From: Lineus longissimus
Lineage: Eukaryota; Nemertea; Pilidiophora; Heteronemertea; Lineidae
Direction: 5' to 3'
Assembly (NCBI RefSeq): GCF_910592395.1
Contig: NC_088308.1
Location: 5,845,001 to 5,909,000 of the forward strand
Length of the DNA stretch: 64,000 nt
The notes beneath the pieces were generated by a model. It saw only the letters and a list, made by a program, of their open reading frames with translations, was not told the DNA's origin and did not search any database. The translations under genes were made by a program, and so were the position numbers. Below, in pieces: positions 16,001-51,754 of this stretch. The first letter of the stretch is position 1; each line of letters opens with the position of its first letter.

Positions 16001-19000
16001 CGGCCTTGAGAAGCTGTGACAGAGCTAGCTGTCTAGTCAGCATAAAAGTGCCCACTCATGCCCGGGTGGACTAATCCTATAGAAATGTGGGACAATGCAG
16101 GCTGGGCTTCAGGCACTTCTCATAGGCCGTCCGTGACTGCAAAAAAAGGCCTCCCTAAAAAAATTATTTGATATTTTCAAATCTTCTCTTCTCTCATTCC
16201 AGTTGGAGAATAATATAGGCAAATGTAAACCGTTATATGATTCATTGATGGGACTCATCAACACCACATGCAAGAAAACACTCAACCCACTCGTAAGTAC
16301 ACATAGAATCCAAGTTATATCCTGGTTACAGACAATCCGAGTCCTTTGGGGCTAGTTAGAATTGCGGGGTGAAAGGATTAGAGGGTTGAAAGATGCTCGT
16401 TTCGCCCCTCAATTTTCATCAGCCACAACGAATTCCTGCGAGTCAATTCTGTTATTTCCTGTGGCATGTAACGGGTGTATTAACTTGAATCACCGCACTT
16501 GCATCACCTGTTGAAAAATAACACTCTTCTATATTAGATATCAGTTCTCACTCTCAGATGTCAACTTATTTCTCCTTCACCCGTAAATATCTCGCCCTGA
16601 TATTCCAATGTTTGCATTTCATTTCAGAATGGATTCTGGTTTGCATTTGGCTGGTGTTTATTCTTCTTCATTCCAAGTCTGATATTCAGCGTCAAGTTGG
16701 CGGGTTTATATCGCAAGACAGAAAAATACTCCGCTAAAGAGTTTGATGACGCGTAAGTAAAGAAACACTTAAATTTAACTTGCTCCTGTTCTCAACAGGG
16801 TAGACATGGACGATAGAAGCACTGCTCGTGTTTGCTTATGTTTGTTTAACATTTGTCTTATCCCCAAGTGCACCCGGAGAAATGTCACCCATCCCACCGA
16901 ATTGGGCAGAAAGTCAGGCCTAGTATTGAGTAATCACCGACAATATAAAATCATGTCAGTTTCGGTCCACTTCAGATTAAAAGAAAGTAAGGTTCGTTAA
17001 ACATTGTCAATTTGGCAACGATTTAATTCAAAATACATCCAACAACTCTCATGAAGCATGTCAAACGGAAAAATGTGTTGTCTTAAAGACCTTGATGTTG
17101 TTAAAAGCTTGCGATTTCCTCCGAACATAATTACAAATATCAATGGCACGGCAGACGATGGGAATAGTCTCAAAATAAAGCTTGATGCTCAACTGAATGT
17201 CATAATATCATAATTGTTATCGGATTTAACGTTGCACTGATGAGCTCAGTTGATTGAACATTTGATTTTGAATCATATCAATTTTGGTGTGAAAGTTTAT
17301 GAGCAATTTTTAGCTTACATGTGCAAGCTTATAACAAATATATTTGAGTATTGGTATGGATACTATGGTAGTTGCTTCCTTCGGTGAACTAGTGGTTCAC
17401 CATATTTCTAATTTGTTTGAATGAGGGAAAATCCCGGTACGGCAGAGCCAGAGGATATTTGGCCCCACCTATTGGTCACATTGGAATAACTCCTCCGCTT
17501 TCATTCCTTAGAGTCGATGACCGCTCCCCTTGTCATCATTTCCAAGCTGAAGACCCTGGTCCTCTCGCAAAAAGAAGGAGTTGGTCTAAATTGACCAGAC
17601 GGCACGAGAAAAATGACCATCGAAAAAAAGATGTCGTTAGAAAGCTGTCCAGGTAGCATTTGAATATGTTCGTGCCTTCCGCAAACCCTTTGAATATAAT
17701 TTAACATGCTAAAAGCTAATTTTTTTTTCAAAAAAGATGCTCTATGTGGCTAAAATAGTATAATAATATCAATCCTAGATACCGGTATGTTTTTATGACG
17801 TAATGGCAGACTGATGATGGTGAAGACATCGTGCCTAAACAGAGCTTGTCAATTTTTACCTTGGCTGGTGAGCTTGTGATGTCTGGAGGGATCATATAGT
17901 TTAGCAGCTGTCATGAGCGATACAAGTTCTAATGTCACTGATGTCTCTCCCGATGTGAGTCCAACATTGCATCGTCAAAACGTACAGCACCAGCCACTAT
18001 TGACATACTCTCACCTGATGATGAAAGCTTCTAACTGCTTGAATCATTTCTAGTATTAATGGTTTATTAAAAAAGTACAAATTAAGTTAACGACGCTGGT
18101 TTTGTGGCAGCAAACACATAGATGTTTCATTTCATATGCTCATTCAAGAGGACACAAGAACATTTATCGATTTGCTGCTTTGTTCCCATTCAAAAGTCAA
18201 ATGCTACATCATGATTGTATGAACAGAACCAGTCCTTGTAAAAACCATGCCTACCCAAAAATAAGACCGTAATAACTAAAGTCCAGATGTTCGGCGATAA
18301 GTCATCTAACCTCTCTCACCTAAGCCTCGTCCTATTGCCCTTCCTGTTCCATGAATACACAAAAGTCTAAGATCACCAAATCTTGATGTCAATAAATAAA
18401 TAGGACAATAGGTTGTGTTATTAGGAGAAAAGTATGTGTTATTGATTTTTCTCATCTACTTGCTTAAGTCACATTATCGTTAGTGTTGATATGATTTTAT
18501 GACTTGTGTCAACTTATTCTGTACCATTCTCATGTGAGCCAAGCTTAAGATTTGTTGTTACAAGAAAGTATCTCATAACATGTCTCGAGTGAATGAAACA
18601 TTCCTCTGTTATCAAAATGCACACAGGAAATTTTTAGGTAAAAGTGCTGAGAATCCTTCTGTCGTCTTGTGCGCTGTCTTTGCCATCTCATTCTTTGACT
18701 TTAATCAAGTTGAATGAATGTTCATTTTGTCTTTGCAGTGATGCTAATAATTACCACGGTATCTACCCTGGAGATAACATTCCACTCAATGAGTAAGTAG
18801 TAAATCCCCCCCCCCCCCAAAAAAAACAATCATCAAATGCCTGTAAAACGATCAACTTTTGCTTCTCGAAGTGACTAACTTTTCGCTGGTGTTGGCATGG
18901 GGTTCTTTTCCTGGATTGTTGTGCTGGTGAAACATTTTGAGGTGTGAGTTTTAAATTTGTTGGAGTCATCCGTACAGTTTCTGACCAGTTGTTCTATGGT

Positions 19001-22000
19001 GTTCTATGTCCAACTGTGTTCGAATGCCACTGTCTCGGTGCCCATGTGGTATAGTAACTTGTCCGACAGTCACCTCGTACTGGGTAAAAAATCAGGAAAT
19101 TTGGTCTGACTTATTGGAGTATTGAACTACTGCCTTCAGGCAATGAAGTCCCTCATTGAAAGGTCATGCCAGATCTGTCTTTGAAGCGTTATTTGGTACA
19201 AATTTGTCGCCAGTATGTAAGCAATCTAAGAGAACTCAATACTAAGGAAGATCAACAGTCAAACTTGCATTTTTCATTTAAGTTTGTCTAGAATTGGAAT
19301 CCCTGGGTACTGTATTTCAGTTATTAACCTTTATTCATATTGATAAATAATTATGCGTATTGTGCGTCCATATTTCATGAACTTTTCAATTAGTTTTTAA
19401 TGACATTTTCCGCAAATTGCTTCTTATAGTTCTCAATTCTTCACTGGATGCATGATCAAATCGAATTTGGTTTTGTTTGATGAAAATATTCTTTTTATCA
19501 AACAAACAAAAAGTTGGAAGATTTCTGAAAATAGTATTGTAATAATCAAATTGGATTGCATATAAAAATCCTGAAACTTTACATCAAGTGAAGATTAAGA
19601 ATCAGAATTCTCGCTGTATCATGTGTACATATACATACTAACATTTTAACTTTCCATCCTCTCACTTTCCAATCTGCATAATACCGTACACCACATGTTT
19701 CAACAAGTATTTTCCTGCGATTGCGGTTTCTCACGAAATATTGGAACAAATTCCCTCGAGGGAGAACTTATTTCTTGATAGTCTCCTTGATATGCTTGCT
19801 CTCAGAAGGTTCTCACCTATTCCAGGGACCGTCAGTGCAGGATGATCAATGCTTGTTACATGGGTGTATGGCACAGGGCCATCTGTCATGTATCTGGCAA
19901 ATACTATACTAAGACACCACAACCCCCAGGTTGTGAAAAACCGTTGTCAGATTCAGCTTACTAAGAAATCTTCATTCATTTATTCATTCGATGTGAATTT
20001 GATCCTCTCTCCCCTCGTTTATAAGTACTTTACAGATGGCCCTGATTCAACATGAACATCATCATAACAATACCAGCCATGTCATTACCATTATACCTGT
20101 AGCTTCGCCGGTCTTCTCAAGCATACTCTGTCTTAGTGAAGACACCCCTGTCTCAGTGAAGGACCTCTGCCTCAGTGAAGACACGTCTACACGTTGCTGT
20201 GTCACTCTGCATGCCTTACACTTTGCAGTCATGGCTACTAGTAGTACAGTGAAACCTCCCTAAGCGGACACCTCTCTATTAAGGACAACGTCTCTATCAG
20301 GGACACAAGTTTTGGTCACAAATTGATTGTATCCATTCAATTTGACCACTCTAATCAGGACATCTACTAGGGATAGCAATTGTCAGTCTTGAGGGTGTCT
20401 TCAATGGAGAGGTGCTACTGTTTTGAAAAGAACAAAAAAACAAGATATTAGTTTGTAACGATCCATGGCTGCTTGTAAAGACACTACATTACTCCTCACA
20501 TCATATCTCCTCACTAACAAAGGTTACTAATGCTACGAATCTTCGCCTATTAGTCGGTTTCCTCCGCCACACAGCTGATGCCATCTATTGTGGAGAACCA
20601 GTACCGGGTTGTTACTAATCAAATTGCAGTTTTGTGAAAAAGGCATTCACCTACCGGTTGACACTGTGTCTACTCCATCTCCTCTACCCAGGATGACGAG
20701 GAATTAACTTTGGGGCGTCATCATTTGTTGGAAGTCCTGCCTAAGGTCGTGAAACATTAAATGACTTTCCTTGGCCACGTTGTCAGTCTCTTTATCGGTT
20801 GTTGTAATAGTCTCCAATATCATTCACTAGTAGTCTTCCTGAGATATTTGACATTACACACCATCGGATTAACATCGCTATGACTTTTAAGCATTTGCAC
20901 AACACCACATTTTAGGGACTGGTCTGTAGCGTGATTTCAGATGCATTCTGGTGGAGAGCTAAGGCCTCTTAGATGTAGAACTTGGTTCAGGAAACTAACT
21001 TGTGGATCGTATGCCTGAAATGCATCTGAAATTTGCTTTAGACATGGTAGAGTGCATTTATGCATGTCGCGTGTGCTGAGACAGATGTAATCACTGACAA
21101 GTACTGTAGACCCTGTTATCTTTCTCACATAAACGTGATAATTTGGGATGATAAGCTTGGTGATGGCTTATGAAAAGCTTTCCATTGCTTCCAGTTTGTG
21201 TAGATTTGATAAAGTATTTTGGCAGAAATGTCATATTTCTAAAAATGAAGAAAATCAGTCTGAGACGAAGGTAAAAAAATCTTGACTTTTTGGCTCCGGG
21301 CTGTGGAAAGAACAGGGTTTACCATCACAGTAGGCATAATCACTAGTTCTGTGTTTGTCCACTAGGTGTCAGCACTGAGCATCCCATCTCATTTAACTCT
21401 ATCTCATCTAGGGACATGTTAGGCTATCGCATCAAAGGCAAAAAACTCAAATTTCCACGCTTCCCTCTGAGTGAAGACACGAGACATTTGATAATTGAGG
21501 ACATGCTTCAGTTTGTTAATCCTGCTGAAAGGTATTTTGTCACTCAGATGTTTGTAAAATGCAAGATGTTGGGCCTCTGAAATGTGCACACGACAATTTC
21601 ATCGATGTGGGTGGTAATTGCAGATAGCAGTTGGCTGTTTCCAGCTGAAAGTATTTTGTGTCAATTTTCCTCTTTTCAGATGAGCACCTTTTTGCATGGG
21701 CAAATTCTGTTGGGTTACACTGTTGATTGGGTCGTCAGAGCTGACAAAATGTTGACAACCTATAATTAGACAGCCATTTTCCCCGAAAAAGAAAAACACC
21801 ACTATGAGCGCTGATCTGGAAAGAAGTAAAATATGTTTTTCTTGCCAAATTTGAATGGAAGAGAAATCAGAATGCAATACTGAGAAAGCTAGGCTTTGGA
21901 GTCTTTTTCACTGTTTCTAAATAATGTTGTCATGACAAACAGCAAGCATGTCTTGCCTCAATGAACTACATGCACCTTGTGAAAAACATAATTTGACTTT

Positions 22001-25000
22001 AATCTAAGCCATCATCTTGACAAAAATGATGGGATGTCTTTCGATAACATATCTGCAATTGTCACCCCGGCCACAATCTTTGTATCACAGGCTCATTTCG
22101 TGCCCTTGTCATGCATTCTGTTGTTTGAGCTTTAGTTTTCACTGTATGCTGAGTTGTACCCATTTTTTCCCGCCTACTAAGTATGTACTGTGTCGACCCA
22201 TTTAAGCCAGTTAAGGCAGGTCTTTTACACATACACATAAAATAGGTGTTTTGTACAGGCGCCTCTCAGCTGGTTTAAATGCGTTGATACAGTATGTGCA
22301 CAATATATATGAGCATGTGTTTCCTTAAAGTACTTGGGGTACCACCACTGAAGATTAGAGGTGATATAATGATGTTCATTATAGGCCTGGTATTTTAAGG
22401 AGAGCACATTTTGTCCTTTAAAGGGGGACTTTAGGCAGGGGCTAGTGAGTCAAATTGAAAGTCTTTAGCTGACTAGTGTGCCAAGTTAGGGGCAAGGGTA
22501 GTGTTTGGTTCAGTGATGGTTATAACACAAGCACGAATAGTTACCATTTACTGTGAGATAAGAGAGACCCCTATTGGTCACTTCATGTAACCTACCTAAA
22601 TCCTACCCATAGTCTCCCTTTAAGCACAATGCACAGCAACTCAATTGAAGGCGAGTGTTGGAGCGACAAAAAATCGTGATTGCTGATTGCTCAAGAAGAG
22701 TCAACTAGCTTCTCAGACAAAGGACTTTTCTATTGTTCGAATTGTCTCCATTTTTTGTCGTCAAGGCCTGTCCCTCATGTCACTCATGTCATTCATAGTC
22801 CTTCATCAGTCATTTGCTGGGCTAGTTCTATCTTGCCCGATGCTATTTTTCTCAACTGGTACATGGTATTTTGTTCATTTCCATATCAGGCCAGACACTT
22901 ACACGTACTCTGCCCACATCCCAGCTAGAGTGTTGCAGTAAGTCGACTGCTGGTGCCATGTCTTTGGTGTCTGTCAATAGTGTTGTTCATATCACTTTAG
23001 GGGGTTTTTGTATTTTAGTGATATACCCAAATGAGGTTAAGAGATAGTTGAAACGAAAAGACAACTGAAATAGAAGAAATGTTAAACTCATTCGGTCTAA
23101 AGTTGTTCATAGGTTGTCTGCTCATGGTTTGAGTGTTTTCAGTCGTAATGTTGAAATGGATGGACTTGCCACGCGAGCTCCCAATCACACCTATGCAGTG
23201 ATGTGCAAAGCCTGTTTTAGTTCAATCCTCAATCCAGCATCAAATGGAAGATTTCCCCAGTCACTCGAGACATTGTTGGGACCCGGGTAGGGTAACATTC
23301 TGCGACTCTGACATTCTTCTTGAGGTTGATTTTTGATTAAGGGCTTAGGTTGTTTGGGAAATAATTGGGTGCACCGTAAACCTGTATTACATGGGAACCT
23401 CTTCTGTTTGGTACTTTTGGCTGTAATCATCGAATATGGCTATAAATGGGGACTATGCATGATTTGTCGAAGAACGAGTTGTTGTCATCCAATTGTCATT
23501 ATGATATTCTCCACAAGTTATCCAATCAATTTCTTTAGAACCTTTCATCAAACTTTGGCTATAAGTATCTTTTGTGATATTTACAAATCTCCGATGACTG
23601 ATCAGTTTTGCCATTCAGCTTAAACACTTAAACTTGAAACTTTAGTTAGTATACTAATATGCACTAATAACATACTAACATTTAAATTTCTCCCTCATCT
23701 ATTTATATGATTGATTCAATCTGAACTGTTTTTTTGTTTCCTCAGTCTGCACAAAAGTTTGGCCTGCTCAATGAAATCTGGTGAATTATAGTTGAATTCA
23801 ACCCTACTGTACTTTCAAGCCCTTGATTATGATATGAAACACATGAATAAATGTGCCAAAAGAGAGGAATTATTCAATTCTATTTAACTATATATTTTAT
23901 TACTAATATCCAATTTGATCATTTCAAGACCACCTGGGTCACCTAAATCCCTCTGACCACTGTATATTTTGATTAATTAGATTGATAGATTAACCTAGGC
24001 ACTGTACATATCCTTGTGATGAATCTATTAATCTGATGTGTGTTGTCCCTTCACTGATTGGTATATGCATGCCTCACTGACACCCGACCCCCCCCCCCAT
24101 TAAAACCCTTTTGGTGCCAAAGTCCCATCTCTCCAACGTGCACTTTAGATCGGAGGTCTGCCAAAATTACGTTTCTTCTACTTTTTTAATAGTTGATGAA
24201 ATATCCCTCCATGTTGTAAGACAGGATATTTCAATGTTCTTCGGTCAATGCCAAATCGTAACCTATGCACAAAGCTATTCCAAATCGTTGTATCTCCGTA
24301 ATTCTGTATTTACAAGTCCCAAGTATACAAATAAGGTGATTTTCACGTCAATTACTGTTTCTAGTTCCTTCCCTTTATCCCTGTTATTGCAGTGTGTTAA
24401 TTTGAATTAAGCTGCTATTCTTAACTGCCAAACTCCATTTGATTGATGATAATTTAGTCAGAGAGTAGCCCATTGTTTATCTCAAAGTTCTCTAATCCAC
24501 TTCCCTAGTTCATTAAACACTTTGTTTTGCAGCCTAGACTGGTGTTCTCTTCATAAACCCAAACCTCATTCCTATGTTCTAGGTCGAAACAAAAAGACAA
24601 ATCTTATGGTGGCGTTGTTTAGTCCGAAAGGAATAGAACTAAGATGCCATGTGGTAAATTACAAAATGTTCGCATAGGGGATTAGTGGTACCCTGTAGGT
24701 TCATGGTTGAAGCTATGCGCTCCCCTGTGGCTCCGCAGCAAATCTTTTGCCAAGAACATTTGAATTTGCTTTAGTATTTTGTCATTCGGAGGAAGCTCCT
24801 TTGGGTTAACTTTTCCTGTCCCCCTCTATAGACCATCCTCAGACAACATACAATTTATTTATTTCCATAGCCTTCATCAACCCAGCCCGTTTTAGTAATT
24901 TCCTTATATCTAAGCAATGATGCCATTGGGAGATTATTATCTGGACTACGAATAAAGAATCTGAAACCCCTTACATCTGTGATTATATTTGGCAAATCAA

Positions 25001-28000
25001 AAAATACATCATATCCTTTTTGTCATTTGGAAATTGATGATGATTTGATGTGCAAGAATGAAGTATGACATGCTTTTTAACCATTTAGGAGTCGGCCATA
25101 TTGTCGCTATAGTAACGGTAACTATATGATGCAAGTTTTGTATGCACTGAAGGCAGCCTGTAATGTGCATGACACTTTCTGGGGGTCGAATTAGCGTGTT
25201 GAAATGGCTAATGTCGTTCTGCTTCTGCTACATGAATTGTCCAAGACGGCAGATGACTGTAGCTTAGTCATATTGTTTGTTCCTCTATCAGTTTAAATAG
25301 GATTGGGTGTGTTCAGGCTATGAATGGGTGTTGGTTAGAGTGCTGGGCCCTGTCTGTTATGTGCTCCAACTGATTAAATATTGCTTTGGCTCTGTAGTTT
25401 GGCATCAAATTCATGGTGTGGTGGATTGGTCTGCAGACTCTTAGTCCAGATAGTAATCCCCTCTGGTGGCAGGTTTTAGAACTAGAATTAGTAGTGGAAT
25501 GATCCTGTTGGTTGGTAAACCCATTGCCTGACTTTGTTCTATCATACTTTTCTTTGCATGCTTTGTACAGAATGAGGAACAACCCCAAACACTATCGCGA
25601 TGGTCGTGGCTTACAGAATACCGGTTATGAAAGAGATAGTAACGGCCCAGGCCGTAGTGATCAGAGAAATGCTAACCCTGCTCATAATCCTGACTATAAT
25701 CCTGACCACAGAGGTGGGTACGGTGATGGGGGGTCTTCGCGGGCAGGCCAAGGATATCCTGATGATTATCATCCACATTCTGGGCCACCCGCTTATTCGG
25801 CACCCTCTCCGCCACATTGGCAAAAGTAAGTTTATTTAACAGACTAACACACCTGACAGCATTTGCAACTGTAACACATGTGTTGCCATCATTACATATT
25901 TGTTGCTATGGTTTTAAGTTACCATGGCTATGTTGCTCTGTAACACACTGGTTACCATGGCTATTTTGTTCTGTAACACACTGGTTAGCATGACCATGTT
26001 GCTATGTAACCCTCAGGTTACCATGGGTATGTTGCTATGTATCACGCTGGGTACCATTGCTATGTTGCTATGTAACACACTGGTTACCATGGTAATGTTG
26101 CCATGCAACACTGGTTACCATGGCTATGCACATGTTGCTTTGTGACCATTCACTCATCACCGAGTTGATGTCAAACATTGCCACACACTGGTGTTTGAGT
26201 GCGATTCAGTGGCTACCATTGTCACATATATGTTCTATGGCGACACATTAGCTGCCTTAACCTATTGTCATGGAAACTCACTTGTCAGAAATCTATCGGG
26301 GACCAAGTTTATTGTCGCTTTTTGGGAAGAAATTAGGTAATTTGCGGACAAAATCCACGAATGATATTTTTATGCTTTGTGTCCTTACTTCATGTTAATT
26401 CAACATCTTTTAGTTATTTTGTTTTCTTAAACAGTTATTTATTGCTTCAGTTTGTGATAATTTCTGACAAGTAGCCTGACTCCCACTGCCTTCTTTTAGC
26501 CACATTGTGAACTAAAAGGTAGCGCTGGGACTCTAACCTGCACAAACACTTTCATCGTTCAGTTATCTCATGTCATTTTGCTCTTACTCAGTGGGAAGTC
26601 AAATTGGTTTTAAAAAATATATGTACAACATTAATTTCCTTTCTTTTGAAACGCCTCTAGGTTCTTTATAAAGTACTAATATGGATGCTCAGTTTATTTC
26701 AGTTTCTCAATTCCTTTCTTTCGCACTTCTTTCGCACACCAAATAATGTAGGAGTGCAGTTGTACTTAGAGATGTTTGGCTATTTTTCCTTCGTTCTTCA
26801 GATATCCTAGTTTAGTAGCAGTATTTGTGGTCTCCTTCTTCCTCATCCTGAATTGATTGATATTTGTGTCATTTGATACTAATCATTCCAGACATCATGC
26901 TCTTTGCAATAGTATCATTCTTTCAACCACCTCTAGTTTGGGAAGGGTGTTCATCGATGCCGAGTGCATTGGTGACACCTGATCAAACCTTGCGAGCGCC
27001 TCACCGATACATCAGTTATAATTGCTTCAACAACAACCTCGATACATATGTAGTGTTTCTTCATAACCAGAGAACCTCTTCATGTTCCAAGTTTCTCCAC
27101 ACATACTCAGTTCCGACAGGGAGAGGGGTTGGGGTGGGTTGCATTCTCCATGGCATTCAACCGTACTCGTATCACTGTCTCTGTCTCCGTACATCCTAGT
27201 CTCCGCCGTGTCTACATCCCTTATCCTCCTACAGCAGAGTGTATTTCAGGCCTTGGATCAGACCTAAAATGCACTCACACAGATTGTATTCAGGAGCGAT
27301 GTAGGAGGATGGTTCTCTTGTGATGTTCAAAAGATGTTTTATCTCACTCTGCGAATCCCCCATTCGCCTCTGTCTCATGTCTAACCTTTGAAGTTTGTCT
27401 CCATTATTTCCTTACACATTTCTTCTGCGTTTCATCAACTTTTTCCAAAGATTTTCTATTTTTTGCATGTTTTAAGATTAATATTTCTAAGCAGTTACAT
27501 TGCTGTAACAGTTACATTGCCAGTAGATGGTGACTGGCGGTCTCGTCACATACTGGTACCTCAGTGCTTTTCTTTCACTGAAGCTCCTGTGAAATTCTTA
27601 ACCAAGGTGTACCATTACTGTGAAATTCACAATTTAGGTGTACCATGACTGTGAAATTCACAACAAAATGTACCATGACTGTACAATTCACAATCAGGGT
27701 GTACCATGACTACAATTTACATCCAGTAAATCAATTAAATGCACTACGTGTATATGCATGATATTACTTCTGAGCAGTACTTCATCCCCTATCTCTGACA
27801 CTTCTATTCTTTACATACTAATAACCGACCCCTTTCATCTTGGAACAGAGTGACGAGGGGTGACCCAATGCCACCGGAAGCTGGTTACACCAACCAAATG
27901 TGTAAAGCCTAAATGTATAAAACCTTATGTTTAAGTCTGGTAAGTGGTGCCCCTGGTGGTGAGAAGCAAACTTACTGGTAAATGAGACCCAGCTTAAACC

Positions 28001-31000
28001 CCCTGTCATCCTGGTTCAAAGGTCACTGTAAACACCCTGCCCCCTGGTTCTAAGGTCACTGTAAACACCCTTCCCCTGGTTCTAAGGTCACTGTAAACAC
28101 CCTGTCCCCTGGTTCTAAGGTCACTATAAACACCCCGTCCCCTGGTTCTAAGGTCACTATAAACACCCTGTCCCCTGGTTCTAAGGTCACTGTAAACACC
28201 CTGTCCCCTGGTTCTAAGGTCACTGTAAACACCCTGCCCCCTGGTTCAAAGGTCACCGTAAACACCCTGTCCCCTGGTTCTAAGGTCACTGTAAACACCC
28301 TGCCCCCTGGTTCAAAGGTCACTGTAAACACCCTGTCCCCTGGTTCTAAGGTCACTGTAAACACCCTGCCCCCTGGTTCTAAGGTCACCCAAGCTTCACT
28401 GCGACATCTAGCTTCGGGCCGGCCCTACACATGCTTTCATTCTGTCCAGAGCCAATAGCATTCCGCGAAGATGACGTCACTGCAGCTGCTGCCCTCTATT
28501 TCCCCATCGCTGAATTACAGGCAATGTCGGACAAACATGCGGTTTCGTAATGGATTCAGGCTTTCTAACTAGGGCAGTTAGATTCAATCTGGCACATGTC
28601 CGAGTGTTGGAAATACTACATAATTGTTCTGAATATTTCTCTCTCTGACTCTATGGTATCATTCATGCTAAAAACAATGCAGGGTCAGAGATAATTGACT
28701 TTGAAATAAGCTCAAATGCGTAGAAATAGGTGTCGATGGCCGACTGTCACGTGACTAAAACGTCATCAATATCTTATGCAAATGACCTTGTGACCTATAA
28801 ATAGTAACTTCGCAAGATGCTATTATGAAATTCAAGTTATTTCATCATATTTTGCTGTGTCATCTGGAATGCTCCTGTTGCCTTGTCCTCTGCCCTCGTG
28901 GTCATTTCTTGCGCCCTACCAAAATAAACCATCAAACTCCTCTTTCAAATACAGTTCTTTCCTATACACATATCTAACTAACTCTTCTTGCCTCCATCTG
29001 TTTATTTCAGATCGGCCAACATCAGGGATAATTTGAGAAAATATCAGAAAAATCCTCACTTCCCGCCAAATGCTGTCAAACCTGATAACCGTGTCACCCA
29101 TCCAACTGCCTCATATCAGGCTTGGGACTAGTTGTAGTGATCACTTTCTATTGTTAGGTAATAGTAGTATTTGTATGCAAATGTGGCCCGCTGTGGTCAG
29201 GCATATATCCTTCAAATGTTTTCTCAAACTATCCTGCTGTTGTGTACCAACACACCGGTAACATAATCACATCTTTTGCCATTTGGATTGGACCGAATTC
29301 CACTTCCTCAATTTTGAAGGGTCCTCAGTCCCTCCCCAGTCCATACTCAAGTCCTGGAAACACCCGTGATATTTTCAGTCCCCGTGTTCAAGGTGGTGTA
29401 AGCTTTTCACAGTAATGTACCAATGTACTGTGCCCTCACAGTCGGTTTTGAGTAAAAGGAGCAGTTCTGTATTGGACCTCGACTTGTTGGTAGAGCTACA
29501 AATGCCTAGTTCATGAACCTGCAATTAGATGGCACTGAATATCCATTGGAGAAAAGCAGCCCAAAGGTTGAGCTTGAAAGCATGAAGCTTTATCAGGGCA
29601 TTACAGTATGAAAAAATGTTTGGAGTCAGTTTTATTTTTGCATGTAATTCGTCAATTTAATGCTCATGATAACATAAACGAGAGGGCCCAATAAAGTCAG
29701 GAATAATTCTCGTCTCTCACTACCCTCCGGCGCCATCTAGTGACAGGTTTCTTCACTAAAAAAACCGCTATGTAGCTCTACCAAATGGCCACAGCCAGAA
29801 GGCAATTGCTGCCGCCTTTGAAGTTAGGTGGCCAGATTACCAAGTCTACAGTGACACCCTCTGCAATGAAGGACTCAGCTTGGGATTTGTCCTTACCTCA
29901 TTCCTGACCAAAAGCTTTGGCGTGTGCCTGTGTTTTTGGTTGGTGGAGTATTTCTCTGTATCATACTAATACAATTCTCGCACTATCTTCCACAGTGATT
30001 CTCAATTTATTCCCTGTGAGTTTGTTTTGTCTTCTGATAAAAAACAGTGTTACATATCATTTGCTGCTGCAGTTCAGTGGTGTACATGTATTTTGCTTAA
30101 CCTCTAAGACTTCCCACTTTGTGTGTTGTGCCATGCTCTTCACCCAAACCAGTGCCAAGTTTGGTATACAGTTCTATTCAGAAGTAAATTCAATCAGATA
30201 TTTCTGTCAAGCCTTGGTCTGTTTTGGGTAAGAACAGTAGACATAATGAAACAAATTTTGAGCTCCTCTCAACTTTGTAATTCATCAAGAGACATAACAT
30301 TTAAAACTCCAGTAAATTATGAGATGATCTTAACCAGTCTTTCAATATAATCACTGGCAGACGTCATTTAGTTTTTCACACGATAATCTTTCACGTACTC
30401 GTAATTTGCTTTCTTTGGCAAGAAGCAGAAAATATTTGAAATGTCAGTAGTTTAGTGATGAGTTGGACATTTATCGAGTTGAGAGGAGCTAATGTTCATT
30501 TCAGTGCATTGGGCTAATTGATGTTGTAGTCCTTGTTTTCAGTGTGTACATTTACTTGGCTTATCTGCTGAATGAAGAGTTCATCTGAGCAACGGTAGTT
30601 TCAGCCCATGCTCCGACCGATTTACAGAATAGCCTCAACTAAACTACATACAGAGTGTACCACAAATTACTTAAAGGCAAAATAAAATGCTTTCAATTCA
30701 GCGAGTGACCGTCAATAACATTTTGAATGACATGTAGCTTATGATTTAAAACTTTTTGGGATATGTGATAATTGTTAACGGAAATGAAGGTAAAAAACTT
30801 AAAAGTGACATTTGTTGTTTCACAGAGAATGCCGTCTGTGATGTCACTTCTGTCTTTTTGGCTATTTGTGACTTGCTCTACCAAAACTAGGCGCTTGTCG
30901 CATCTGAACTCGATAGGTTGATACGGACTTGTTCATTTCCCTATTGTAGACCTTTTGTGAAATCTATTACAAACTGATTTGGTCACATTTCACAAAAGGT

Positions 31001-34000
31001 CTACAATAGGGAAATGAACAACAAGTCCGTATCAACCTGTCAAGTTCAGATGCGACAAGCGCCTAGTTTTGGTAGAGCGGGTCACATTTACTCTAATGCT
31101 ATTTGTTGGATAAAACATACATATTTGTCATCATAACTTTCCAGCGGGTGTTTTTTATTATCTTATGCTGGAGGGGATCTTAATATTCGGTTTTATTTGC
31201 GCTTTAAACAGTCTGTTGCAACAGAGACAGGATTCAATGCACTGAAATCTGAAGCATGGAGAAACGCACAAGGATCTGCAGAGAAAACCAATTGAAGACA
31301 ATGGAAATGTCCAGGAAAATATGTGCAGACGAGATGCAGAAGTCAAAGGAGGGCATTGCTTAACTGGCTTTCTCTGCCTTTTCTGCTTCAAATTTGTAAA
31401 GCGCTTTAATGTCCTACATTATAAAGTGCTCTATATCATTAAGTTTAGAAAAAGTCAATTTGCCTTCAGAAGAAATGATCTTATTCTCTGCTTTAAAAAT
31501 TCGTCTTCTTGAGCAATTCGTTAGTGGAGATAACTACACCGTCCAGGAGGTTTTTCTCTGCGAGAAAGATTGTGGCTGATTATGAAACTAAACAGAAGTT
31601 ATGTGATGCGATTTCTTGTCGAAAGGAAAATATCGTCCTGTCTTGTATTTCATTTCGATCCTTGTGCGTCTGAGTGCCCGATAGACCTTAGCTATGTTAA
31701 CTACCACATTTAGTTTTGTATTAACATAGCTAGGGAGCTTGGGTGACATGTTCTAATAATCTCTATTGTCTTTTCTTTTGCTGATATTTATCAATTGCAT
31801 TGTTTTCTCACAAAAATGGGTGCAAATATTGGTCGAGATTAAGTTTCTTTATTTCAAATTTACTTCATGGCCTCATCTCTGATACGTTTGGCCACCTTGC
31901 CATCAGCTTTATTTTGGTTAAAGGTTTTGAAAAAATGTCGCCACTGGTCATCTCCGTTGGTCATTGGCTGATCAAAGTATTAATGTAAAAGGGAAGTGCA
32001 AGATTCTTTCAGTTCTTTATCATAAAGAATGTCTAATTCTAGACCTCCTTTAATCTAATCCATGCCATCAGCATCCTACATCTAAGAAGGCAGGAGAAAT
32101 TCCGGCGACGGTCGACGGTTCATTTGTGGCACTTGCCTGGCATGGTCAACCAGGTTGGCCAGACGGACAATACGTGGCCAAAACATAAACTTCCCAATTC
32201 CCAAATAGACGCGCCGTTATGGATTGAAAAACCTTTCGCAGAGGTATTCATTGGTACTATTAATAAGCAAGGGATTCTCTATGAATGCATACAATGCACA
32301 GCCGATACTGTATTTGCACTCATCATTTTGATTTTTAGGTTAGGATGAGATGTTTTTTGATAGCAGGCCAGACGAAAAGTGAATCATTGAATTGAGTTTA
32401 AAATTACCCTGTTCCTGTGGATGATTTGAAAGAGAAATTTTCTTTTTGATTTAGTTGATAAAAATGGTGTGCCTGCTCACCCATTAAGCTATATAACCTG
32501 AGCCTGCTAACAACAAATGCTGTAAACGGCTAAAGAATTGCGTCTTTTATTTTTGCGATATGCTAAATATTCAGAAAACTTTGGAGGATTTCAAAGTTCT
32601 TTCAGTTTTCTATTCAAAAAGTATCCTTTTGCGATTCTTATTGTCGCAAAGCTCTGTTATTCGCAAATATGCAGAAAGAAAACACACGCAAAAAAAGAGC
32701 CATTTACAGTATCTTGCCTTCTTGAATTTTTGCCTTTTTCTTGCCTTGGCTATGAAATTTTGATATTCTAAATACTATTGATGGTGTTCGTTTTCAATTT
32801 TTTTATTTTGTATGTTTTAGAAATTTGTGGCATGTACGTGATTGATGGCGTGTTTTAGTAAAAAAGACAAAGTTTGTCGACTGTCTGAGAGTTATTGGTT
32901 GTCATGGGTTAAATTGGTTTAAATGGATGGTTATCATAGGCCAACTGAAAAATTTCAGGCGGATGTGCCTTTGATTTTAACTCGTTGTCTCTGATAACCA
33001 CGAAAATGTATGCATTGATTGTTAATTATCAAGTAACTTTCCTTGATTTTTATTAATACTTAAAAAAAATAATCAAGTAAGCTCACAACCACTCTTTGTA
33101 TTTGTATTGACCACTACTTCCGTTGCCCTGGCGACACTTTATCACCTTTGTTGCCATGGTTGAGCATTAGCACTTTGGTTACCATGGCAACACAATAACA
33201 CTCGTGACACTATGTCAAAGTGGTTGCCATTAGGTGGCCCCGTGGCACTTTAGTTGCCATGGTGACACAATAACACTTGGTTGCCGTGGTGACACCAAAA
33301 TGGTTTTGTTTCCATGATTTTCTTCAGACACTTTGGTTGCCAAGATGACAACGCCTTTGTTGTCATGGTGACACATGGGTTGTCATGGTGACACATGGGT
33401 TGTCATGTTGAGACAGTATCACACTGGTTACAGATTTGAACATTTGAACACATGTTGGTTTGAGCATGAACACATCTGTCCTCTCTGTTGTATTCTATTG
33501 TCTAGACAATATTACAATGCTCTCACACAAACAGAAGCAGTTACACCAAGTTATTACCATGGTGACGCTTATATACTGGTTTACCCAGTCTACTCTGCTT
33601 CGAATTAACTACATTTTCTCAAGTTATCAGAGAAATTGACAAGGCCTCGGTGTGTGCCTTTGCTTTAAAAGCCTATGAAAAGCTAATGTTCTGCTGCTCT
33701 GCCTTTATGTCATTTTCATGATGCAATGCTCGAGCCTAAAGTGATGCATTGAAAACACACATCCTGAGTAGCTTGACAACATTCCAAGAGATTGCATCGT
33801 GAAACTCATGTATATAATTACTATACTTTGTTTCCCTTCTTGATGCTTGGTTTAAAATGCACGAGTTGCAACTAATACTTTACTAATATCAGAATTCGGT
33901 TGGGATGGCATAAGCCATCTCCCAGTCGATTTCTTCTTGTAAAATAAAAAAAATATTGGCGAGTCCCAAAAGTGTTCAGTCCAAAAAGGAGAGGGGGCAT

Positions 34001-34495
34001 TTGTACTCGGTTTGAAACTGCATTTAACCTTGTGTAGATAATACTACTATCGTTTGATATCAATCTAATTTGTTTCTACATACGAGCTGAAGAAACAAAT
34101 GTCTTTCAAAATGAGTAATGTAAAAAACTTTGATAATTGAGTTGGTCGCTATGTTTTAAAAACATGTCTGACATTACATGATAACTATTCAGAGGCACAA
34201 ACGTGTGAATCGTTATATATTCTCAAATTAATAGCGCATCTTCACTGTAATTATGTTGCACAAATATTGTACTGTGAGAGTTTTCATTTTGACAGTAACA
34301 TGTAGAACAACACTCCGATACATTTCGTTCTGTGTACATTGTATCAAGAATTAATAAAGACTAGTCTTTATCCATTCTTGATTGTATACATGTATTTGAT
34401 GATGTGAAAACTTTTTTCTTTGCCTAATTCTTAATTTTCCTTTTGTATGTTTCAGTAACCGGTACTATGGACACGGGGGAGGGAATGGATACTGA
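2265..34495 (+). CDS. PROM1: Prominin (CD133 family) five-TM membrane glycoprotein, 5' partial, multi-exon
   Basis: Prominins are cholesterol-binding pentaspan glycoproteins of microvilli, cilia and other plasma-membrane protrusions. Core exons by eye: 2265-2335, 2967-3172, 3868-4000, 4265-4331, 4608-4691, 4990-5189, 5514-5525, 7873-7947, 8264-8327, 9871-10024, 10369-10515, 10994-11126, 11322-11401, 11743-11824, 12287-12445, 12973-13047, 13508-13597, 13830-13877, 14162-14242, 15801-15869, 16203-16292, 16628-16752. All have AG/GT boundaries and matching phases, giving about 748 codons. The order TM1, Cys-rich cytoplasmic loop, TM2, large loop, TM3, TM4, large loop, TM5, tail is the prominin architecture. 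Tail exons are listed separately. The signal peptide exon is not visible, so the model is 5' partial. It is probably co-orthologous to the vertebrate PROM genes; the symbol is used in that sense. Confidence 0.93.
4265..10024 (+). CDS. PROM1: Prominin exons: first large extracellular loop
   Basis: Exons 4265-4331, 4608-4691, 4990-5189, 5514-5525, 7873-7947, 8264-8327 and 9871-10024 encode about 220 residues of mostly helical, heptad-like sequence without hydrophobic segments, as in the first prominin ectodomain loop. A Cys pair lies in 4990-5189 (GACSTSLCNTV), in the position of a conserved Cys pair in vertebrate prominin. NIT and NIS sequons occur in the exons at 7873 and 8264, and an NQT sequon in the microexon. 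The last exon ends just before TM3 with a basic, charged stretch. Confidence 0.9.
5514..5525 (+). CDS. PROM1: Prominin 12-nt microexon (V-N-Q-T)
   Basis: A 12-base segment sits between a good acceptor (CTGTATTCCAG) and a strong donor (GTGAGT). It reads Val-Asn-Gln-Thr. The preceding exon ends and the following exon starts in phase 0, so including or skipping it keeps the frame. If included it adds an N-glycosylation sequon to extracellular loop 1. Its existence is inferred from splice sites and frame only. Confidence 0.6.
8828..9780. repeat. Tandem segmental duplication of about 430 bp, offset about 525 bp
   Basis: The block starting CCATTGTGTCACACTATAGC at about 8828 recurs at about 9351 with few differences, running through CACTCGGGTCAATTCCCGAGTG (a perfect short hairpin) to the CAATTTGTTGGGGT end near 9735. 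The copies are separated by about 90 bp containing a poly-C tract (about 9338-9351). Both lie in the intron before exon 9871. Divergence is only a few percent, so the event is recent. Confidence 0.88.
10369..11126 (+). CDS. PROM1: Prominin exons: TM3, second cytoplasmic loop, TM4
   Basis: Exon 10369-10515 encodes TM3 (GIALSCILLLVVLLNFLGLM), then a short loop with FGACGERPYED and ACNKGVGADFLM. Exon 10994-11126 encodes TM4 (GVGFTFLFCWLLMLMTMILF) and the start of extracellular loop 2 with a Cys after VETEV, as in vertebrate prominins. The GLLCGVCG-like and GVGxxFLFCW motifs are the strongest family matches in the gene. Both introns are phase 2 at the exon starts. Confidence 0.94.
11322..16292 (+). 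CDS. PROM1: Prominin exons: second large extracellular loop
   Basis: Ten short exons (11322-11401, 11743-11824, 12287-12445, 12973-13047, 13508-13597, 13830-13877, 14162-14242, 15801-15869, 16203-16292, and the start of 16628) encode about 255 helical residues. From exon 12287 on, junctions are phase 0, so several exons (48, 69, 75, 81, 90, 90 bp) could be skipped in frame. Sequons include NST in 15801-15869 and NTT in 16203-16292. The KCKPLYDSL and TTCKK cysteines near the end match the Cys pair that precedes TM5 in the family. Confidence 0.9.
12541..12905 (+). mobile_element. tRNA-derived SINE with internally duplicated body
   Basis: It opens with GGGGAGCACGGTGGCACAATGG, an A-box-like start, and about 50 bp later has a B-box-like GGTTGCGATACCC, the layout of a tRNA-derived pol III promoter. 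The body segment with GCTAGATTGTG, CCTTGGTTCTCC and TCTGGATAGGCTG occurs twice (about 12640-12720 and 12750-12830). The 3' end reads GGGCTATATATAAACTC and runs into ATTATC repeats, a common SINE tail. It lies in the prominin intron between exons 12445 and 12973. Confidence 0.8.
13223..13398. mobile_element. MITE-like element, CAGTAGAACTTC family
   Basis: It begins CAGTAGAACTTCTCTATAGAG and ends near GAATGTTCCACT. Inside are several GAGGTGTCC / GGACACC units in both orientations. The same motif vocabulary (CAGTGAAACCTC, GGACACCTC) occurs in the element at 20247-20420, so both probably belong to one non-autonomous DNA transposon family. No transposase is present. Confidence 0.55.
14300..15372. 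mobile_element. TA-flanked MITE, about 1.07 kb, with GGTCGTGTTAGCGGGG subterminal repeats
   Basis: The left end is TA then CAGTGGAACCCCGGT; the right end is ACCGGGGTTCCACTG then TA, a near-perfect terminal inverted repeat with a TA target-site duplication as in Tc1/mariner and pogo-type elements. Just inside both ends are several copies of GGTCGTGTTA(C/G)CGGGG in direct and inverted form. The interior (about 14400-15150) has no transposase-like frame. It sits in the prominin intron between 14242 and 15801. Confidence 0.82.
16628..16752 (+). CDS. PROM1: Prominin exon: TM5 and start of cytoplasmic tail
   Basis: It encodes NGFWFAFGWCLFFFIPSLIF and the juxtamembrane stretch SVKLAGLYRKTEKYSAKEFD, matching the LNLFWFG and FAVKLAKYYRR region of vertebrate prominin-1. 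It ends in phase 2 (donor GTAAGT). Every downstream exon I can find has a phase-2 start, so this exon can be joined to any of them. Confidence 0.95.
17512..17652 (+). CDS. Candidate prominin tail cassette exon, 47 codons, basic
   Basis: A pyrimidine-rich stretch ending CATTCCTTAG precedes an open segment that starts and ends in phase 2 (141 bp, donor GTAGCA). It would join TM5 exon 16628-16752 to 18739-18792 without changing frame. The product is basic (AKRRSWSKLTRRHEKNDH). The donor is weaker than in neighbouring exons and there is no family match, so this is a splice-logic prediction only. Confidence 0.4.
18739..18792 (+). CDS. PROM1: Prominin cytoplasmic tail exon, 18 codons
   Basis: Acceptor TTTGCAG and donor GTAAGT flank a 54-bp phase 2-2 exon reading DANNYHGIYPGDNIPLNE. 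It continues directly from the EFDDA end of the TM5 exon. Tyrosine-containing tails are typical of prominins, where cytoplasmic Tyr residues can be phosphorylated; that role is inferred here. Confidence 0.8.
20247..20420. mobile_element. MITE-like element, CAGTGAAACCTCC family
   Basis: It starts TACAGTGAAACCTCCCTAAG and ends GAGAGGTGCTACTG. The two ends are an imperfect inverted repeat, and GGACACCTC / GAGGGTGTC motifs recur inside. It is related in motif content to 13223-13398. Only the left flank has the TA expected for a target-site duplication. Confidence 0.6.
21412..21531 (+). CDS. PROM1: Prominin cytoplasmic tail exon, 40 codons
   Basis: A 120-bp phase 2-2 exon (acceptor CATCTAG, donor GTATTT) encodes EDMLGYRIKGKKLKFPRFPL and then SEDTRHLIIEDMLQFVNPAE. 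It is open throughout, charged and soluble, and keeps frame with the exons on either side. The acceptor's pyrimidine tract is moderate. I know no counterpart in vertebrate prominin. Confidence 0.62.
22890..22937 (+). CDS. PROM1: Prominin cytoplasmic tail exon, 16 codons
   Basis: A 48-bp phase 2-2 exon (acceptor ATATCAG, donor GTAAGT) reads PDTYTYSAHIPARVL. Frame is kept from exon 21412 and into exon 25571. It contains two closely spaced tyrosines. Confidence 0.62.
23746..23791 (+). CDS. Candidate alternative terminal exon of prominin
   Basis: A long pyrimidine tract (TGTTTTTTTGTTTCCTCAG) precedes a phase-2 start that reads LHKSLACSMKSGEL and then a stop at 23789-23791. An AATAAA lies 55 bp after the stop (23846-23851), the right arrangement for a short 3' terminal exon. 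No homology supports it. Confidence 0.35.
25571..25825 (+). CDS. PROM1: Prominin tail exon, 85 codons, Gly/Tyr/Asn/Pro-rich
   Basis: A 255-bp phase 2-2 exon (acceptor TTTGTACAG, donor GTAAGT) encodes a low-complexity hydrophilic tail: MRNNPKHYRDGRGLQNTGYE, then repeats of NPDYNPDH and GGYGDGG, then HPHSGPPAYSAPSPPHWQ. It resembles a disordered cytoplasmic tail rich in Tyr and Pro. It joins in frame to either the terminal exon at 29011 or the one at 34456. Confidence 0.75.
25905..26160. repeat. 33-bp minisatellite, about eight degenerate copies (GGTTACCATGG core)
   Basis: Units of about 33 bp contain GGTTACCATGGCTATGTTGC and TCTGTAACACACT. Because 33 is a multiple of three, a spurious frame repeating MLLCNTLVTMA stays open (25924-26145). 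The GTTACCATGG core matches one half of an RFX X-box. It lies just downstream of prominin exon 25571-25825. Confidence 0.85.
27200..27323 (+). CDS. Candidate alternative terminal exon of prominin
   Basis: Acceptor context CTGTCTCCGTACATCCTAG is followed by a phase-2-compatible frame (LRRVYIPYPPTAECISGLGS and on to a stop ending at 27323). The frame is Cys-rich near its end (KCTHTDCIQERC). No polyadenylation signal is evident close by, and there is no homology. Low confidence. Confidence 0.25.
27595..27715. repeat. Minisatellite, about 34-bp unit, about four copies
   Basis: Four units carry GTGTACCATGACTGTGAAATTCACAA with small changes. Each unit contains the partial palindrome GTGAAATTCAC. 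Confidence 0.8.
28010..28390. repeat. 33-bp minisatellite with an AGGTCA in every unit, about 11.5 copies
   Basis: The unit is CCCTGTCCCCTGGTTCTAAGG followed by TCACTGTAAACA. Copies are nearly identical; two main variants carry TTCTAAGGTCA or TTCAAAGGTCA. The minus strand keeps an open 11-residue repeat (VTLEPGDRVFT) because the period divides by three. I treat that frame as an artefact of the period. Confidence 0.95.
29011..29131 (+). CDS. PROM1: Prominin terminal exon A (tail ends YQAWD)
   Basis: A strong acceptor (CTGTTTATTTCAG) opens a phase-2 frame reading SANIRDNLRKYQKNPHFPPN, AVKPDNRVTHPTASYQAWD and a stop at 29129-29131. An AATAAA occurs downstream near 29690. The composition (Asn, Pro, Tyr, basic) matches exon 25571-25825, from which it continues in frame. 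Confidence 0.65.
30867..31086. mobile_element. Foldback (near-perfect palindromic) element, about 220 bp
   Basis: The left arm (about 30867-30963, containing GCTCTACCAAAACTAGGCGC) pairs with the right arm (about 30987-31086, containing GCGCCTAGTTTTGGTAGAGC) over about 95 bp with only a few mismatches and a 2-3 nt indel. A 23-nt loop separates them. This is a foldback-type MITE or an inverted duplication. No clear target-site duplication was identified. Confidence 0.88.
33130..33420. repeat. Degenerate tandem array with X-box-like GTTGCCATGGTGAC units
   Basis: About ten units of 25-35 bp share GGTTGCCATGGTGACAC or GGTTGTCATGGTGACAC. One copy, GGTTACCATGGCAACAC near 33178, contains a full palindromic RFX-type X-box (GTTACCATGGCAAC). 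The motif resembles the separate array at 25905-26160. Confidence 0.8.
34456..34495 (+). CDS. PROM1: Prominin terminal exon B (phase-2 frame, ends GGGNGY)
   Basis: Acceptor TTTGTATGTTTCAG. In the phase required by all upstream tail exons it reads NRYYGHGGGNGY and stops at 34493-34495. That Gly/Tyr-rich end suits exon 25571-25825. A second frame in the same exon is open to 34595 (see findings). The following sequence is probably 3' UTR; AATAAA occurs near 35463, 35617 and 36183. Confidence 0.6.
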
Positions 34496-34595
34496 GCTGC
34501 CATACGCCACACCTGCCCGGCGCCCGTACATGCCCGGGGAGCAAGCATCTCGTGATCACACGCCATATGGGTTTTCTTACGGACCGTATTTATAG

Positions 34596-50894: not shown

Positions 50895-51672
50895 ATGGAA
50901 TTACAGGACCAACCGAATTTAAGGGTGTCTGACCCCGCTGAAGCCAAATCAGCCATCATCAAGTTCAATCTCAATGATGAACCTGAAAGAAAAGATGGTG
51001 TCGATGACGAGCAGACGGATGAGAGTACCGGGAAGGCGAAGAGTACTCGATTGGACGCTCAATTCCATACTTTCATACGGAATATGACTGAAACGTCCCT
51101 CTTCAATGTCTTCATCATGACCGCGATTGTCCTGAATGCGTTTGCGATGGCTTTGGAGACAGACATTTCCTTGTCCGAGTTGGTTGGCCCTGATTTTTTC
51201 TCAGTGCTTGACCAGATATTCTTGGCCATCTACACCGTTGAATTCATCATGAAGATCTACGCCGAGCCTAAAGAATACTGGCGAAGTTTCTATAATTTGT
51301 TTGACTTTTTTGTTCTTGTCATGTCGTATGTCCAAGAATTTATGGTTATCATCGACCCAACTGGACAGCAGAATTTTGGTGGATTGCGGATCCTGCGAGC
51401 TCTGAGATCACTGAGGACGCTGAAAACCATCTCATTCATCCGAGGACTTCAGGTGTGTACTGTATAGCCAAACTCCCGCCGTTTTCGATTTTTGCTTCGG
51501 ACACTTATGCACTTATGTCGTAGTAACGTTGGTCGTCCGTATTGTTGCGCCAGTTGGGACAAAGACGACACTGCGACAGGAGCCAGCTCAGTTACAATAC
51601 ATTATTGGAACGAATCATTTCTTTGTTGCTCCCTTATCTTCTCCTTCTTCTTCCGTCTTCATCATCATCCCC

Positions 51673-51754
<82 letters not shown>

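What the first reader, a model, noticed from the sequence alone, without database searches (positions are those of the whole stretch)
16628..34595. Modular prominin cytoplasmic tail: serial phase 2-2 exons and several terminal exons
After TM5 every tail exon I found (18739-18792, 21412-21531, 22890-22937, 25571-25825, and candidate 17512-17652) starts and ends in phase 2 and has a length divisible by three. Terminal exons at 29011 and 34456, and candidates at 23746 and 27200, also accept phase 2. Any subset can therefore be joined without a frameshift. Vertebrate PROM1 is known to vary its C-terminal tail by splicing; this arrangement would allow a much larger combinatorial set over about 18 kb. 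The phases are seen directly; the use of alternatives is inference.
Basis: partly seen in the sequence, partly recalled or inferred. Interest (0 to 1): 0.75.

Follow-up and report, generated by a model that had tools for sequence, protein, structure and literature searches.

The report
Prominin tail built from swappable exons
In what is most likely the bootlace worm, the inner tail of the membrane protein prominin is encoded by small exons that could be kept or left out without breaking the message; alternative tails of this kind are already known from vertebrates, and here one exon carries a short motif that may dock a ubiquitin ligase.

Summary
The window is, by my inference, Lineus longissimus chromosome 1. 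The gene is a true prominin (PF05478, 6e-154), and my exon model reproduces residues 93-971 of the public model protein "prominin-1-A-like isoform X6" exactly. The phase claim holds: the four listed tail exons are 2-2, 44 of 44 junction codons are not stops, and 32 of 32 cassette/terminal combinations stay open. X6 uses 18739, 22890, 25571 and terminal 34456 and skips 21412. Candidates 17512, 23746, 27200 and 29011 cannot be told from chance by their splice sites.

New here: three further prominin genes on contig C6 have the same layout in my models: 14 of 14 tail introns in four genes are phase 2, against 4 of 21 upstream in this gene. Vertebrate PROM1 tails show it too (Table 1, PMC3047580). 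So the array is probably ancestral; alternative tails are already known for PROM1. A "much larger" repertoire is not shown. Exon 25571 carries a PPxY motif present in 8 of 10 mollusc tails here, suggesting (inferred) a splicing-controlled link to NEDD4-type ligases.

The parts
16628..16752 (+). TM5 exon, phase 0 in, phase 2 out (..FDD GC|)
   Evidence: exact match to P0001
18739..18792 (+). tail cassette 1 (2-2, 54 nt), DANNYHGIYPGDNIPLN; carries the [DE]-x-I-P-[LM] module at the place of vertebrate exon 26b (VETIPMKN)
   Evidence: in isoform X6
21412..21531 (+). candidate cassette (2-2, 120 nt), weak splice sites, skipped in X6
22890..22937 (+). tail cassette (2-2, 48 nt), PDTYTYSAHIPARVL; strong sites
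   Evidence: in X6
25571..25825 (+). tail cassette (2-2, 255 nt) with a PPxY motif (PPAY); weak acceptor, strong donor
   Evidence: in X6
29011..29131 (+). candidate terminal exon (phase 2 in, 39 codons then stop), not in X6
   Evidence: no independent support
34456..34495 (+). terminal exon, coding part in phase 2 (completes N, then NRYYGHGGGNGY and stop), used by X6; its open phase-1 frame to 34595 cannot be reached from a phase-2 donor
27849..27912 (+). a further phase-2 terminal frame that I noted (VTRGDPMPPEAGYTNQMCKA, stop); very weak acceptor (-4.7)
   Evidence: unsupported
12287..16292 (+). seven consecutive 0-0 exons of the second large extracellular loop: control for runs of symmetric exons

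Best explanation
This is the cytoplasmic C-terminal splicing region of a L. longissimus prominin gene. SHOWN: after TM5 the four introns of X6 are phase 2, and the four listed cassettes and two terminal exons can be joined in any order-preserving subset without a frameshift; the same layout appears in my models of three paralogs. SHOWN FROM PRINT: vertebrate PROM1 has alternative tails, ten types demonstrated or predicted; that its junction is phase 2 I infer from the printed sequences. INFERRED: the array is ancestral; it grew by gain of exons inside one ancient phase-2 intron, which tolerates 2-2 exons (recalled: Patthy's exon-phase rule); weak-site exons such as 21412 are regulated cassettes. 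INFERRED: each cassette swaps a short motif on a presumably disordered tail (disorder not tested): a conserved IP(L/M) module (18739), a PPxY ligand for WW-domain proteins such as NEDD4-family ligases (25571), and different last residues. Tail choice would set ubiquitination/ESCRT sorting and adaptor binding while the membrane-bending body stays constant.
For: Exact match of 879 residues to isoform X6, which skips 21412. In four genes (A by X6; B, C, D by my models) 14 of 14 tail introns are phase 2 and 10 of 10 internal tail exons are 2-2, against 4 of 21 introns in phase 2 among the 22 upstream exons of A. Cassettes of B and C are alike pairwise: 21, 1 and 1 of 5000 shuffles reach the observed scores. 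Strong open 2-2 pseudo-exons: 0 in 59.5 kb of background (0-0: 2; 1-1: 0), 2 in each of the B and C tails. Vertebrates: in Table 1 of PMC3047580 YDD becomes YDE in the tail with exon 24 alone, so exon 24 ends GA| (phase 2), and exons 26a, 26b, 27, 28 and F27' each follow it. Seven Acipenser ruthenus isoforms show four different joins. IP(L/M) module in 10 of 13 lophotrochozoan tails (0.36 expected from shuffles), PPxY in 9 of 13 (1.00 expected). Isoform numbers fall with length in 31 of 31 within-species pairs, ties allowed, 21 of them from Acipenser (names and lengths, tallied), and 971 aa is the longest form from the four cassettes with terminal 34456 and without 21412, so X1-X5 probably need 21412, 29011 or an unlisted exon. 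Print: ubiquitination of tail lysine K848 links human prominin-1 to TSG101 and exosome release (PMC11776279, passages).
Against: Only one isoform sequence could be read, and it is a database gene model; no RNA evidence was at hand. 21412 and 29011 have no direct support. Symmetric phases also occur upstream (seven 0-0 exons), and insertion into one phase-2 intron would give the pattern without alternative use. The B, C and D tail models are mine, not annotated; entry phases follow from the exon before, and my scan of B and C looked only for 2-2 exons, so the 10 of 10 is partly by construction. Some of their sites are weak (B middle-exon donor -0.3, B terminal acceptor 3.8, C middle-exon donor 3.5, D terminal acceptor 4.4). 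No PPxY or IP(L/M) match in the B, C or D tails. Deleting the tail did not disturb the microvillar location of mouse prominin-1 (PMC11776279, passage). My confidence went from 0.75 to 0.70 on writing down the selection.
Confidence: 0.7

Rival explanations
1. Neutral exon gain: all exons were added inside one ancient phase-2 intron, so they must be 2-2, but the tail is spliced constitutively (mostly the X6 form).
For: The tail cassettes of A, B/C and D look unrelated to one another by eye, and all are 2-2; seven 0-0 exons upstream are equally symmetric.
Against: The public record is numbered X6 and stands for 22 cluster members; 21412 is skipped in it; vertebrate relatives use the same arrangement alternatively.
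Confidence: 0.2
2. Part of the array is not exonic: 21412, 17512, 23746, 27200, 27849 and possibly 29011 are chance open frames with splice-like ends, and the real tail has only three cassettes and one terminal exon.
For: 67 open 2-2 pseudo-exons at the stringency of 17512, and 44 acceptors of 5.0 or more, four of them at least as good and as open as 29011; none of these exons is in X6. The coding score does not single them out, but it also fails for the real exon 25571.
Against: Isoform numbering by length suggests forms as long as or longer than X6. At middle stringency the plus strand of the tail has more open 2-2 pseudo-exons (27) than its minus strand (5) or 19.5 kb of control (13), so some unlisted exons may exist.
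Confidence: 0.4
3. A far larger combinatorial tail repertoire than in vertebrates.
For: All 32 cassette/terminal combinations tested are open; cluster of 22 member sequences.
Against: Vertebrate clusters are comparable (33, 16); three of the extra exons cannot be told from chance; what the 22 members are could not be read.
Confidence: 0.12

Closest known systems
Vertebrate PROM1/CD133 C-terminal splicing (types A-J; exons 24, 25, 26a, 26b, 27, 28, F27'; PMC3047580, section read)
   Same: Phase-2 exit (my inference from the printed tails) of the exon before the tail cassettes; cassettes and several terminal exons joined in different subsets; first cassette with a [DE]-x-[IV]-P-[LM] module.
   Different: The Lineus cassettes are mostly longer, the listed ones are all 2-2 (vertebrate exon 25 shifts the frame), most show no likeness in sequence, and one carries PPxY.
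Mollusc and insect prominin tails (Haliotis, Aplysia, Littorina, Patella, Tribolium and others)
   Same: In most, an IP(L/M) module followed by a PPxY motif.
   Different: Their exon structure could not be seen here; I saw no match to the other cassettes.
PPxY motifs bound by WW domains of NEDD4-family ligases (PMC8509885, start of abstract in a search listing only)
   Same: PPAY in exon 25571.
   Different: Binding is untested. No title among the 15 of 722 papers listed for prominin/WW domain/PPxY or the 10 of 68 listed for prominin with Nedd4 and ubiquitin names such a link; the unlisted papers were not looked at.

Membership tests
Prominin family (PF05478) | profile match over the body | tested here: met
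   6e-154, 514.6 bits against a cut-off of 34.3, profile positions 78-799
Prominin family (PF05478) | five transmembrane segments with two large extracellular loops | not tested
   No topology prediction was run; the segments are inferred from the profile match and by eye
PROM1-type C-terminal splicing region | last transmembrane/juxtamembrane exon exits in phase 2 | tested here: met
   4 of 4 genes: A, B, C and D
PROM1-type C-terminal splicing region | symmetric tail cassettes | tested here: met
   10 of 10 internal tail exons 2-2 in four genes, 21412 not counted; for B and C the scan sought only 2-2 exons
PROM1-type C-terminal splicing region | first cassette with an IP(L/M) module | tested here: met
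   18739 in gene A; no match in the B, C or D tails
PROM1-type C-terminal splicing region | cassettes and terminal exons used alternatively in transcripts | tested here: inconclusive
   X6 skips 21412; cluster of 22 sequences; no other isoform could be read
PROM1-type C-terminal splicing region | tissue- or stage-regulated choice | not testable with these tools
   No expression data
PPxY / NEDD4 substrate | PPxY motif | tested here: met
   PPAY in exon 25571; 9 of 13 lophotrochozoan tails, this one included. In P0001 alone 16% of shuffles also give PPxY
PPxY / NEDD4 substrate | binding and ubiquitination | not testable with these tools
   Needs a bench assay

The most novel reading that the evidence does not exclude
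The prominin tail of early bilaterians was already a phase-2 splicing array with two modules, IP(L/M) and PPxY. Splicing in or out of the PPxY exon switches prominin between a stable protrusion protein and a NEDD4/ESCRT cargo for vesicle release. Vertebrate exon F27' (SAPPRx; SAPPSY in Embiotoca, P0064) is the worn remnant of the PPxY module.
Probability: 0.22. Interest if true: 0.6.

Novelty: new member of a known kind. Interest (0 to 1): 0.4.

Why it matters
It suggests that modular, frame-safe tails are not a vertebrate invention: the same phase rule appears in four prominin genes of a ribbon worm (three by my models) and in PROM1. It also points to a PPxY motif on a separate exon, which would give a direct test of how tail splicing could control ubiquitination and vesicle release of prominin.

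Tried and rejected
Coding-potential score: it fails for the confirmed exon 25571 (all 2000 null stretches score higher), so it was not used to judge tail exons. Solved-structure search: only two weak apolipoprotein A-IV matches. RBFOX-like GCATG sites: density in the tail region near that of the window (1.19 against 1.00 per kb), not used. Homology of the 12-nt microexon 5514-5525 to the vertebrate mini-exon A10': the insertions lie about 60 alignment columns apart, rejected. The long open phase-1 frame of exon 34456: it cannot be reached from a 2-2 chain and X6 uses phase 2, rejected as the tail. A composite tail search returned five proteins, P0001 and four others; I saw no sign in their tails of 21412, 17512, 27849 or 29011, but the tool prints no alignment. 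Papers with prominin and nemertea: 0 in the held library. Copy number of tail exons in the own genome: not answered. The strict splice thresholds were chosen with the exon scores already known.
Full report
WHAT IT IS. The window is stretch 5845001-5909000 of contig C1 in a 391,118,348-base assembly. The published L. longissimus assembly is 391 Mb with a chromosome 1 of 29.45 Mb (PMC8593623, passages); that the window is this species is my inference. My model of 22 upstream exons plus tail exons gives a prominin (PF05478, 6e-154). With the X6 tail its 879 residues equal the end of P0001, "prominin-1-A-like isoform X6 [Lineus longissimus]", letter for letter. Residues 1-92 lie outside the window at C1:5831442-5831717.

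THE PHASES. The 21 introns between the 22 upstream exons in the window are 14 in phase 0, 3 in phase 1 and 4 in phase 2. 44 of 44 possible junction codons are not stops, and all 32 subsets of four cassettes with terminal exon 29011 or 34456 read through to one stop. But seven consecutive 0-0 exons precede TM5, so frame-safe runs are common in this gene and do not by themselves show alternative use.

WHICH EXONS ARE REAL. X6 contains 18739, 22890, 25571 and 34456 (phase 2) and lacks 21412, 17512, 23746, 27200, 27849 and 29011. A splice-site matrix built from the 22 upstream exons picks out, among open 2-2 stretches of 30-330 nt, only 18739 and 22890 at strict thresholds (2, against 0 on the minus strand and 0 in 19.5 kb of control); the thresholds were set knowing the scores. 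At middle thresholds the tail has 27, its minus strand 5 and the control 13, so unlisted exons may exist. 25571 has a weak acceptor (-0.5) and 21412 is weak at both ends (0.5, 2.7). 17512 (67 pseudo-exons at its stringency, 41 in control), 27200 (acceptor -2.1) and 23746 and 29011 (two of 44 acceptors of 5.0 or more; four others are at least as good and as open as 29011) cannot be told from chance.

HOW MANY ISOFORMS. P0001 stands for a cluster of 22 member sequences. I could not read the others, and the tool does not say whether all are isoforms of this gene. In nine other species, isoform number and length run in opposite order in 31 of 31 pairs, ties allowed (tallied; 21 of the pairs are from Acipenser ruthenus; the Pan troglodytes PROM2 rows bear other names and were left out). 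If that holds here, X1-X5 are at least as long as X6 (971 aa). That is the longest form from the four cassettes with terminal 34456 and without 21412, so 21412, 29011 or an unlisted exon is probably used. This is inference. Vertebrate clusters of 33 (Ranitomeya) and 16 (Ambystoma) show that 22 is not exceptional; clusters may hold several species.

PARALOGS. The same genome has further prominin matches on C6. I modelled the TM5 and tail exons of three genes (L010, L012, L016). In each, the TM5 exon exits in phase 2. Internal tail exons are 36, 48 and 36 nt (B), 27, 60 and 30 nt (C) and 75 nt (D), all 2-2, and the terminal exons are entered in phase 2. In one search my first coordinates for C and D were off by one or two bases and gave wrong phases; one search has the corrected ones. 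Two limits: entry phases follow from the exon before, and the scan sought only 2-2 exons, so the count is partly by construction. Some sites are weak (B middle-exon donor -0.3, B terminal acceptor 3.8, C middle-exon donor 3.5, D terminal acceptor 4.4). B and C cassettes resemble each other in order (21, 1 and 1 of 5000 shuffles reach the scores), which supports them as real exons. With gene A counted by X6, 14 of 14 tail introns are phase 2. Background of 59.5 kb holds 0 strong open 2-2 pseudo-exons, 2 of 0-0 and 0 of 1-1; the B and C tails hold 2 of 2-2 each.

VERTEBRATES. Table 1 of PMC3047580 (section read) lists ten PROM1 tails, A to J, demonstrated or predicted. From it I infer that exon 24 ends GA| (the last D becomes E in the tail with exon 24 alone), that is phase 2, and that exons 26a, 26b, 27, 28 and F27' all accept it, while exon 25 is said there to shift the frame. 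Among the proteins collected here, seven Acipenser isoforms show four different joins of these modules. In human retina, skipping of exons 24 and 25 (that paper's numbering) changes with development (PMC11445533, passages). The kind of system is therefore known; this is an invertebrate member.

MODULES. Tails were cut out of an 81-protein alignment, rows with little or no tail (P0025, P0081) kept in the counts. A [DE]-x-[IVLMFY]-P-[LM] module is present in 10 of 13 lophotrochozoan tails (0.36 expected from shuffles), 4 of 4 non-dipteran insect (0.14), 2 of 2 amphioxus (0.07), 19 of 44 vertebrate or vertebrate-like (1.03), 0 of 2 unnamed (0.08) and 0 of 16 dipteran (0.84). In Lineus it sits on the first cassette, as in vertebrate exon 26b. 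PPxY is present in 9 of 13 lophotrochozoan (1.00 expected; 8 of the 10 molluscs), 4 of 4 non-dipteran insect (0.72), 2 of 2 unnamed (0.13), 0 of 2 amphioxus (0.09), 1 of 44 vertebrate or vertebrate-like (0.37) and 0 of 16 dipteran tails (0.29). These rows are related to one another and not independent, they include the query's own protein, and for P0001 alone 16% of shuffles also give PPxY. Neither motif occurs in the B, C or D tails.

MECHANISM. Most likely the tail is assembled from cassettes that carry short linear motifs. Weak sites (21412; the acceptor of 25571) are where regulation could act. In human prominin-1 a ubiquitinated tail lysine recruits TSG101 and promotes exosome release (PMC11776279, passages). 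A PPxY exon would be a natural recruiter of a WW-domain ubiquitin ligase. That step is inferred, and nothing here tests binding. The array itself probably arose because exons gained inside one phase-2 intron keep the frame only if they are 2-2.

VERDICT. Observation partly confirmed; interpretation partly supported; new member of a known kind. The added value is the phase-2 rule in four prominin genes of one invertebrate genome and the PPxY cassette.

Noticed in passing
window 5514-5525: A 12-nt microexon (VNQT, 0-0) that X6 includes; it adds an N-x-T sequon to an extracellular loop, lies at a gap in 17 of the 18 other prominins shown (of 80; Tribolium has its own insert there) and is not at the place of the vertebrate mini-exon A10'.
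   Followed up: partly
window 30078-30227: An unlisted open 2-2 stretch with better splice scores (acceptor 8.1, donor 5.3) than 21412; not in X6.
   Followed up: no
L009-L012 (C6:782299 to about 814300) and L015-L016 (C6:226121 onward): Three further prominin genes in the same genome, two of them in tandem.
   Followed up: partly
L016:3149 onward: Paralog D has, in my model, a tail of more than 400 residues, nearly all in one terminal exon, with repeats of the form PRRSISDVISTWF.
   Followed up: no
L010:2141-2480 and L012:2576-2902: Paralog B ends in QEKW and C in QERY, reminiscent of the vertebrate tail ends MEQW and LENW; in C the stop codon spans the last splice junction.
   Followed up: no
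window 34456-34595: The terminal exon is also open for 45 codons in phase 1, beyond the stop used in phase 2.
   Followed up: partly
window 27995-28388 and 25918-26128: 33-bp minisatellites in tail introns: 11.9 copies at 93% matches and 6.5 copies at 81%.
   Followed up: no
window 14300-15380: Repeat-rich insert in an intron with GGTCGTGTTACCGGGG-type direct repeats and, by eye, CAGTGGAACC...GGTTCCACTG ends; looks like a pogo-type DNA transposon (recalled likeness; one search lists no inverted repeat).
   Followed up: no
window 8825-9124 and 9350-9649: A 300-bp direct duplication, 96% alike, in an intron.
   Followed up: no
window 43708-45586 (-) and 50841-52684 (+): Neighbouring genes: a PSMD12-like proteasome subunit on the minus strand and an ion channel (Ion_trans) on the plus strand.
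   Followed up: no
P0005 (Nucella lapillus): A gastropod protein model goes from DFDD straight to a different sequence without the IP(L/M) module, as if that cassette were skipped; the model also carries PF01391 and PF00386 (collagen and C1q, names recalled), so it may be a fusion.
   Followed up: no
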